Part shown: positions 41,817 to 44,330 of the stretch, piece after piece | How positions within the stretch are numbered: the first letter of the stretch is position 1 | Layout: each line of letters starts with the position of its first letter | Assembly: GCA_013368325.1 (NCBI GenBank) | Contig: JAACJK010000057.1 | Location: 992,001 to 1,056,000, forward strand | Length of the DNA stretch: 64,000 nt | Direction: 5' to 3' | Source of the DNA: Ephemerocybe angulata | Lineage: Eukaryota > Basidiomycota > Agaricomycetes > Agaricales > Psathyrellaceae | Position numbers and translations under genes: made by a program | The notes under the pieces: generated by a model | Seen by the model: only the letters and a program-made list of their open reading frames with translations | Databases searched by the model: none | Told to the model about the DNA's origin: nothing

Positions 41817-42684
41817 ATGGACAGCTGGAGAGTTGCTGTTCTCGGGGATGGTGGTGTGGGTAAAACTGCTTTGGCTGTTCAGGTGAGCGCACCCATGGTT
41901 CCATCTATATGTGAATCCGTTAATGACTGGCCATAGTTTACTTTGAACTGTTTTGTTGGTGAGCATCGCATCTCCCGACCCCAAAAGTCGGTTGCTGACT
42001 CTCGGCTATTTCTCCCCTGTGGATTACAGAGGTGTGTTCCCCTGTTTAAATTGCGGCCCACCTGTGATGCTTATATTGCCCAAGACATACGATCCAACGA
42101 TAGAAGATGCCTACCGAAAGCAACTTGTGGTGGATAACCGGATGTGTTTTGTAGAAGTCATCGACACTGCTGGTCAGGGTACGTACATTGCCACACCGCC
42201 TCGTTCGCCTGCTTATCGTGCATTGACACAGAGGAATACGCCACGCTCCGTGATCAGTGGGTCCGGTACGGATATTGGTCACTATATCTCCAGGGTCTCT
42301 GCTAATACTCGGTCCTTCAGGGAAGGGCAGGGCTTCATCTTGGTCTATTCCATTGCCTCGCGATCAACATTCGACCGGCTCGAGATTTTCCGAGCGTCAA
42401 TGCGCAAGGTAAAACGTGGGGATCCTATCTTCATGCTTGTGGGCAACAAGTGCGACAAGGCATACGAGCGGGAGGTATCACGGGAGGAAGGAGCCGCCCT
42501 CGCGCGCCAATTTGGCTGCGAATTCATCGAGACATCAGCCAAAACAGCCCTTAACGTCGAACGTCTTTTCATGAACCTTGTCCGCGCGTTACGAAATACA
42601 AGAAGCATAGAACCAGGAACGCCAGTGAACTCAGAAGTCCAAGGGAAAGTGAAAAAGAAGGGGGTCAAATGTGTTGTCATGTAG
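41817..42684 (+). CDS. Ras-family small GTPase
   Basis: A membrane-anchored signalling GTPase of the Ras subfamily. It begins MDSWRVAVLGDGGVGKTALAVQ (P-loop residues 10-17). The switch I region VETYDPTIEDAYRK (residues 29-42) needs a 2-nt exon. Then come DTAGQEEYATLRDQW, NKCD, ETSAK and a lysine-rich tail ending in the CaaX box CVVM, expected to be prenylated. The exons are 66 nt, 22 nt (41937-41958), 2 nt (42030-42031) and then longer ones. Numbering agrees with H-Ras in the effector loop (Tyr32, Thr35). Divergent positions such as FTLNCF at 23-28 mark it as a basidiomycete Ras-like paralogue rather than a strict RAS1. Confidence 0.92.
42030..42031 (+). other. 2-nt micro-exon (AG) in the Ras-type GTPase gene
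   Basis: The exon before ends TTT GTT G (41958) with a strong GTGAGC donor. The exon after begins ACA TAC GAT CCA (42085). The two bases AG at 42030-42031, bounded by TTACAG| and |GTGTGT, complete the GAG codon for Glu30 of the effector loop, giving F-V-E-T-Y-D-P-T. The introns are 71 nt (41959-42029, CTGAC branch region) and 53 nt (42032-42084). A single-intron reading either shifts the frame or must use a weak GTTGGT donor and lose Val-Glu. Confidence 0.75.
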
Positions 42685-43200: not shown

Positions 43201-44330
43201 ATGTCCTGGTCTATATTTCAATGTCAAGATCCAGACTTTAGCGTGCGCTCTGCTCCCGATAATATTACTTTCGGTGTCAGTCGCCATGCCATGCAGAGGA
43301 GCGAAGTATTCCGTGAGCTTCGCTGTACGTTTTTGTTCCTAGCAGGTTAACAAACCGGATGTAGGTGACATGTTCTCCTTGTGCGAACAAGAACCAGGGA
43401 ATTCTCCGGAGGCACCTGACGCTGAAGGCCCCAACGTTGTGGATCTCCACGAACCAGCCGATGTGCTCGCAATCCTCTTGCGAATCCTGCATGAGCCCCC
43501 CAAACCGCCCGAGGAAATTGTGTCTGATCCCCCCGAGCTCGACTCATATGTCAAGAAGTACAATGAAGCTACGGTGATCCCATTACCACTCCTGGAGCTG
43601 GTGCTGCTTCACTTGGTTGACAAATACCTTCTCGACGAGTCTATCACGAGAGTTCTGGAGCAGCATCTGCTTGCCCATGCAGCCTCGAATGGCCTCCGGG
43701 TGTACAGCTTCGCTGTGGCCAACGGCATGTCGAAGGTCGCCAATAAAGCAAGTCACTACGTCCTGCCCATGGCACAGTACACGTTGCAAGACGTTAGGTG
43801 CATTCCGACGGTGAAGGCATATCACGATATCGTCAGATTGCAGGACTTCCGAGTTCAAGCACTCCGAGATCTACTTCTCAAAGAGGACATCTTCCCTCAT
43901 GGTACGTACCGTTGTCTATTGTGTTTGGTCTAGGAAACCTAAGCAGAGCCATGAAGGGTATGGGGCGTGCCAGCCTCATGCCGAGTCGACACCCACAACT
44001 TGGGACACTCGCCGCAAAGCACTCTTGGCCAGGATTGAAACAGGTAGGTGTACACAACCCTTCTTATTGTTCCTATCAAAAAAGACATCTCTCAACATCA
44101 TGTTGGATAGGAAGCGATATTGCTTGGGAAATGAGCTCACTCGTGGAAACCTTCCGAGATTGCAAGACCTGCCAAAAGGCGTGCATCGCAGCAGTTGACA
44201 TGCTCGCAGTGAGTCTTAAGTCATATTGAATTGGCGGACAATTAAACCTAAACCCCTTTGATACATCTAGTATAAATGTCGAAGGATACCCAAAACTCTA
44301 GAGAAACTTCCATCGGGGTATCTTGAATAG
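43201..44330 (+). CDS. BTB/POZ domain protein
   Basis: A mushroom-type BTB protein, possibly a substrate adaptor or a transcription-related factor; the partner is unknown. It begins MSWSIFQCQDPDFSVRSAPDNITFGVSRHAM, then FRELRCDMFSLCEQEP, VVDLHEPADVLAILLRILH, VIPLPLLELVLLHLVDKYLLD and a C-terminal helical region with KACIAAVDML, ending LEKLPSGYLE. The DPDF start and the LDEPADVL-like box are typical of the fungal BTB family. Five exons are needed. The last three exons contain CxxC-like pairs (CKTCQKAC). It is convergent with PXMP4, with 70 bp between the stops. Confidence 0.85.

What the first reader, a model, noticed from the sequence alone, without database searches (positions are those of the whole stretch)
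42030..42031. A two-nucleotide exon completes the effector loop of a Ras-type GTPase
Seen: a strong GTGAGC donor after GTT G, an isolated AG flanked by acceptor TTACAG and donor GTGTGT, then ACA TAC GAT CCA ACG. Known: Ras effector loops are almost invariant here (x-V-x-x-Y-D-P-T). Only a 2-nt exon gives V-E-T-Y-D-P-T with consensus sites. Skipping would frameshift the protein. A 2-nt exon is too small for exon definition, so the 53-nt downstream intron is probably removed first. Splicing efficiency could then gate production of active GTPase.
Basis: partly seen in the sequence, partly recalled or inferred. Interest (0 to 1): 0.92.

Follow-up and report, generated by a model that had tools for sequence, protein, structure and literature searches.

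The report
Two-nucleotide exon in mushroom Ras gene
A mushroom Ras signalling gene appears to contain an exon only two bases long that supplies part of one conserved codon; related genes in many mushroom genomes look misannotated at the same spot, so it is probably old, shared and widely missed.

Summary
The gene at 41817-42684 (+) encodes a 193-residue Ras-family GTPase. Among the GT-AG solutions enumerated, only an exon at 42030-42031 (AG), between introns of 71 and 53 nt, restores FVETYDPT. Shuffles offer a Glu-giving two-base exon in 0.52% of trials. Of listed relatives, 104 of 104 non-NCBI proteins keep two residues here; 82 of them lie on contigs of 905-1600 nt, hence transcript-like. 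In the search not aimed at the error, 17 of 40 NCBI genome annotations are wrong at this junction, against 3, 1 and 2 at the others. Twelve wrong records looked up fall in 12 Agaricomycete orders. A few translate the flanking introns and fit the same isolated AG. One rival that cDNA cannot exclude remains: a single GT-CA intron gives the identical mRNA. Splicing order and splicing-gated Ras activity are unsupported. One-base exons are already known (Arabidopsis APC11, Fusarium CYP621A), so this is a new member of a known kind; its apparent breadth and the repeated misannotation of a Ras switch region are the interesting parts.

The parts
41817..41882 (+). exon 1, start codon and P-loop (GDGGVGKT)
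   Evidence: translation
41883..41936 (+). intron 1, 54 nt, GTGAGC..CATAG
   Evidence: TTAAT branch-like motif (position value 13)
41937..41958 (+). exon 2, 22 nt, FTLNCFV plus first G of the Glu-30 codon
41959..42029 (+). intron 2, 71 nt, GTGAGC..TTACAG, phase 1
   Evidence: CTGAC branch-like motif (position value 31)
42030..42031 (+). exon 3, two nucleotides (AG), second and third bases of the Glu-30 codon
   Evidence: relatives
42032..42084 (+). intron 3, 53 nt, GTGTGT..CCCAAG, phase 0
   Evidence: CTTAT branch-like motif (position value 11); a paralogue intron in this genome also has GTGTGT..TTAAG ends
42085..42178 (+). exon 4, TYDPTIEDAYRKQ ... DTAGQ
42232..42265 (+). exon 5, EYATLRDQWV region
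42321..42684 (+). exon 6, rest of the G domain, C-terminal CVVM and stop

Best explanation
42030-42031 is a constitutive two-nucleotide exon of a basidiomycete Ras-family gene. Two ordinary GT-AG introns (71 and 53 nt) flank it, and its AG completes the GAG codon for Glu-30 of switch I. Because a 3' and a 5' splice site only 2 nt apart are unlikely to be occupied together, the introns are probably removed one after the other, each defined across itself; either order leaves normal sites. Errors in relatives' annotations suggest that the arrangement is shared across Agaricomycetes. Shown: the sequence, the frame, the uniqueness of the solution among those enumerated, and the annotation pattern. 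Inferred: actual splicing in this organism, sequential removal, and conservation at DNA level.
For: Only enumerated GT-AG solution giving FVETYDPT; chance 0.52%, or 0.085% with a GTRNG donor. 104 of 104 listed non-NCBI relatives have exactly two residues between F28 and T31. In one search, not aimed at the error, 17 of 40 NCBI genome annotations are wrong here, against 3, 1 and 2 of 40 at the other three junctions by pattern (one of the last two, P0055, is only a substitution); 17 of 40 against 0 of 79 gives Fisher p 5e-10. Over all three searches 58 of 87 are wrong here, 47 lacking Val-Glu, against 4, 6 and 8 of 87 elsewhere, but two of those searches used queries lacking Val-Glu. Twelve wrong records looked up lie in 12 orders. 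Readthrough records fit the flanks: P0036 has V-E then VC (GTN TGY after the AG); P0044, P0080 and P0100 end their extra residues in E directly before TYDPT.
Against: No RNA from this organism and no genomic DNA of any orthologue was available (searches found none). 29 of 87 genome annotations are intact here; whether they hold the tiny exon or have lost an intron is unknown. cDNA identity cannot exclude one GT-CA intron. The flanks in relatives are deduced from protein translations. Each listed protein is the representative of a cluster at 90% identity, and only the best 120 rows per search were seen.
Confidence: 0.93

Rival explanations
1. One 124-nt intron, 41959-42082, with a non-canonical GT-CA ending; the AG comes from 42083-42084. 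The mRNA is identical to that of the 2-nt exon model.
For: The identical mRNA was checked.
Against: A CA acceptor would be exceptional (recalled knowledge). The gene's other introns are 53-55 nt and two paralogue introns are 52 and 56 nt, so 124 would be long while 71 plus 53 is near normal. Internal sites would not be expected to recur in Armillaria, Desarmillaria, Amanita and Cyclocybe annotations.
Confidence: 0.04
2. The donor at 41955 (GTTGGT) is joined to 42085, making a Ras lacking Val-29 and Glu-30, as many genome annotations show.
For: In frame; 47 of 87 listed genome annotations carry this form, a share raised by two queries that lacked Val-Glu.
Against: None of 104 listed non-NCBI proteins has it, although searches used queries lacking Val-Glu. 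The Pfam Ras score falls from 174.4 to 165.2 bits. Any Val codon offers a GT here, so the form is an easy prediction error.
Confidence: 0.02
3. The other 2-nt exon register, 42032-42033 (GT), giving FVGTYDPT.
For: In frame; P0070 and P0079 are annotated with FVGTYDPT.
Against: No listed non-NCBI protein has Gly here, 0 of 104; the donor would be GTGTTC instead of GTGTGT.
Confidence: 0.01

Closest known systems
Single-nucleotide constitutive exon of Arabidopsis APC11 (PMC4674806)
   Same: An ultra-small constitutive exon between AG and GT, required for frame and missed by annotation (part 1 of 3 of the text read).
   Different: Plant, one base, different gene; proven by base substitution in reporter constructs, which has not been done here.
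Single-nucleotide exon of Fusarium CYP621A (PMC12940212)
   Same: Fungal ultra-small exon found in 20 orthologues and completing a conserved codon; inferred from phase mismatch and conserved sites (outline and part 1 of 3 of the text read).
   Different: Ascomycete genus, one base, supported by RNA reads. Here two bases, apparently across a basidiomycete class, in a Ras switch region.
Microexons of 2-5 bases reported in Arabidopsis, Drosophila and humans
   Same: Same size class; stated in PMC12940212 citing an earlier paper that I did not read.
   Different: Not this gene or lineage.
Microexons in P450 genes of the basidiomycete Phanerochaete chrysosporium (PMC1184071)
   Same: Very small coding exons between small introns of 45-55 bp in an Agaricomycete (three passages seen).
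   Different: The shortest there is 6 bp.
Spliceosomal twin introns (stwintrons) of ascomycetes
   Same: Two neighbouring introns that need consecutive splicing (abstracts in search listing).
   Different: In a stwintron one intron interrupts a splice site of the other; here two coding bases lie between two complete introns.

Membership tests
Ras family small GTPase | Pfam Ras domain above cut-off | tested here: met
   PF00071 1.8e-51, 174.4 bits against cut-off 21.6
Ras family small GTPase | P-loop, switch I, DTAGQ, NKCD and ETSAK motifs plus CaaX-like end | tested here: met
   read in the translation; motif names recalled; aligned to Rap-1b
Ultra-small constitutive exon | canonical sites on both sides and need for frame | tested here: met
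Ultra-small constitutive exon | bases present in mature mRNA, from that place in the gene | tested here: inconclusive
   relatives' transcript-like proteins carry the residue, but the mRNA would be the same under a GT-CA intron
Ultra-small constitutive exon | substitution of the exon bases alters the cDNA | not testable with these tools
   needs a minigene
Stwintron | internal intron interrupts a splice site of an external intron, so that the whole stretch leaves without residue | tested here: not met
   joining 41958 to 42085 without the AG frameshifts; joining 41954 to 42085 loses Val-Glu

The most novel reading that the evidence does not exclude
The two-base exon dates from the ancestor of most mushroom-forming fungi and has been kept because obligatory consecutive removal of its two introns acts as a slow step that limits Ras output, so that the exon itself is a regulatory device.
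Probability: 0.1. Interest if true: 0.85.

Novelty: new member of a known kind. Interest (0 to 1): 0.6.

Why it matters
If real, this is a two-base exon that appears to have persisted across a fungal class, making it a natural test of how a spliceosome handles a 3' and a 5' splice site two bases apart. It also has a practical side: many public mushroom Ras annotations lack two switch I residues or carry translated intron at this spot, so models, trees and expression constructs built on them would be wrong.

Tried and rejected
Looked for genomic DNA of orthologues in viral and bacterial/archaeal contig collections: no relative in either. Two paralogues of the own genome were read at this place: a classical-looking Ras (C125, L020 reverse strand, SHFVDEYDPT) and a Rheb-looking gene (C143, L018, FVESYYPT); both are continuous there (the two labels are by eye). 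Other Ras-superfamily matches were not reconstructed. The third protein search, with the Sistotremastrum sequence, named no organism outside Agaricomycetes that I recognised among the 120 of 2243 rows listed, so the age limit is open. Paper searches for a 2-nt exon, for microexons in basidiomycetes or Agaricomycetes and for Ras gene structure in mushrooms listed no report of this exon; the one hit is a table of HLA-F deletions. The library holds only open-licence papers. Stwintron considered and rejected. Pfam gave no family for two downstream frames.

Limits of the counts: only the best 120 rows of each protein search could be classified (1652, 392 and 2243 hits), giving 192 distinct proteins, each a cluster representative; one record without contig, P0050 (S. 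commune Ras1p, intact), was kept out of both groups. I sorted records by the source column: any with an ncbi source counts as genome annotation. Nine of the 29 intact ones (P0023, P0028, P0034, P0051, P0056, P0061, P0109, P0113, P0192) also have a jgi or lgn source. P0189 (IE) fails the strict pattern but has the right length. In one search the other-junction patterns fail for 1, 0 and 4 of 104 non-NCBI proteins (exon 1/2, 4/5, 5/6); four of these five are substitutions and one, P0153, looks like a splice variant at exon 5/6. P0055 and, at exon 1/2, P0174 are substitutions too, so the control counts are upper bounds.

Full report
The gene. A Ras-family GTPase lies at 41817-42684 on the + strand in six exons: 41817-41882, 41937-41958, 42030-42031, 42085-42178, 42232-42265 and 42321-42684. 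The product has 193 residues, ends in CVVM, and matches Pfam Ras at 1.8e-51 and Rap-1b and Ras chains in the PDB. The whole genome is 58.7 Mb in 232 contigs; the named best relatives are Agaricales and other Agaricomycetes, so this is very probably a mushroom-forming basidiomycete (inference).

The two-base exon. The donor GTTG|GTGAGC leaves the frame at phase 1, and ACATACGAT resumes at phase 0, so two bases are needed. Between them stands ATTACAG|AG|GTGTGT. Among the GT-AG solutions enumerated, only 42030-42031 restores FVETYDPT; the others lose or replace Val-Glu, give Gly, or insert residues. Dinucleotide shuffles of the interval offer a Glu-giving 2-nt exon in 0.52% of 20,000 trials, and in 0.085% with a GTRNG donor; a 2-nt exon of any sequence appears in 9.5%. 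Each of the two introns has a branch-like motif (CTGAC, CTTAT), as do the gene's other three. A classical-looking Ras paralogue in the same genome uses an intron with GTGTGT and TTAAG ends, so sites like those of intron 3 occur elsewhere here.

Relatives. Three protein searches gave 192 distinct listed proteins. All 104 from non-NCBI sources have two residues between Phe-28 and Thr-31: 102 VE, one VQ, one IE. For 82 of these 104 the longest contig is 905-1600 nt, 21 are longer (up to 7913) and one has no contig. A single uninterrupted frame of about 190 codons on a contig of that size, from a gene cut by five introns, means a spliced transcript (inference); one, P0105, reads on into what looks like a 5' untranslated region. 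The two closest, P0001 and P0002, differ from the window protein at three and four of the first 165 residues and carry FVETYDPT.

Genome annotations behave differently. In one search, whose query was the intact protein, 17 of 40 NCBI genome annotations are wrong at this junction, against 3 of 40 at exon 1/2, 1 of 40 at exon 4/5 and 2 of 40 at exon 5/6 by pattern. The three at exon 1/2 are among the seventeen, and one of the two at exon 5/6 is only a substitution. Over all three searches 58 of 87 are wrong here and 47 lack Val-Glu, against 4, 6 and 8 of 87 at the other junctions; these totals are enriched, because searches used queries lacking Val-Glu. Twelve of the 58 wrong records were looked up and fall in Boletales, Corticiales, Russulales, Gloeophyllales, Polyporales, Thelephorales, Hysterangiales, Hymenochaetales, Atheliales, Sistotremastrales, Jaapiales and Agaricales; ten of the twelve lack Val-Glu, Jaapia has FVG and Armillaria ostoyae keeps intron. 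29 of 87 genome annotations are intact, and their gene structure is unknown; nine of those clusters also hold jgi or lgn sequences.

Some wrong annotations translate the introns. In Desarmillaria (P0036) the protein reads FVE, then VCLMATGPD, then TYDPT: this fits use of an acceptor directly before the AG, with GTN TGY after it, a donor like GTGTGT here. In Armillaria ostoyae (P0044), Amanita polypyramis (P0080) and Cyclocybe aegerita (P0100) the extra residues end in Glu directly before TYDPT, as expected when intron 2 is partly or wholly kept and intron 3 is spliced after GAG. The residue before that Glu (Ile, Val, Thr) can in each case have a codon ending in A, as an AG acceptor demands, though this alone is weak evidence. 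Together these suggest an isolated AG with an acceptor before it and a donor after it in several genera. It is deduction from proteins, not DNA.

The hidden ambiguity. Intron 3 itself ends in AG. Removing 41959-42082 as a single GT-CA intron would give exactly the same mRNA. I rate the single intron at about 4% because a CA acceptor would be exceptional, because 124 nt is long for this gene (53-55 nt for its other three introns), and because the internal sites seem to recur in relatives. Changing the AG to AA, which keeps Glu, would settle it.

Mechanism. The two splice sites are 2 nt apart, so simultaneous recognition is unlikely and consecutive removal is probable (inference). Either order leaves ordinary sites: GTTGAG|GTGTGT, or TTACAG|AGACATAC. 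Nothing here favours removing the 53-nt intron first. Retention of either intron or of both, or skipping of the AG, gives early stops. No evidence supports a regulatory role, and the in-frame form lacking Val-Glu occurs in none of the 104 listed non-NCBI proteins.

Place among known things. Single-base exons are published for Arabidopsis APC11 (PMC4674806; part 1 of 3 read) and for Fusarium CYP621A (PMC12940212; outline and part 1 of 3 read); the latter states that exons of 2-5 bases are known from Arabidopsis, Drosophila and humans. Microexons down to 6 bp are reported in P450 genes of the basidiomycete Phanerochaete chrysosporium (PMC1184071; three passages seen). This is therefore a new member of a known kind. 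What stands out is its apparent breadth across a class and its place in the switch region of a Ras protein. My paper searches listed no earlier report of it, with the limit that only open-licence papers are held.

Noticed in passing
41937-41958: Exon 2 of the same gene is itself only 22 nt long; the annotations P0085 and P0115 lack it together with the 2-nt exon.
   Followed up: partly
42083-42084: The last two bases of intron 3 equal the tiny exon (AG), so cDNA alone cannot tell a 2-nt AG exon from a GT-CA intron; this would hold for any exon consisting of AG.
   Followed up: yes
L020 reverse strand, about 1300-1600: A classical-looking Ras paralogue of this genome has an intron inside the P-loop codons and another just after PTIE, but none at Val-29/Glu-30.
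   Followed up: partly
43370-43933: Open frame downstream of the Ras gene that looked BTB-like by eye; a Pfam scan of this single frame found no family.
   Followed up: partly
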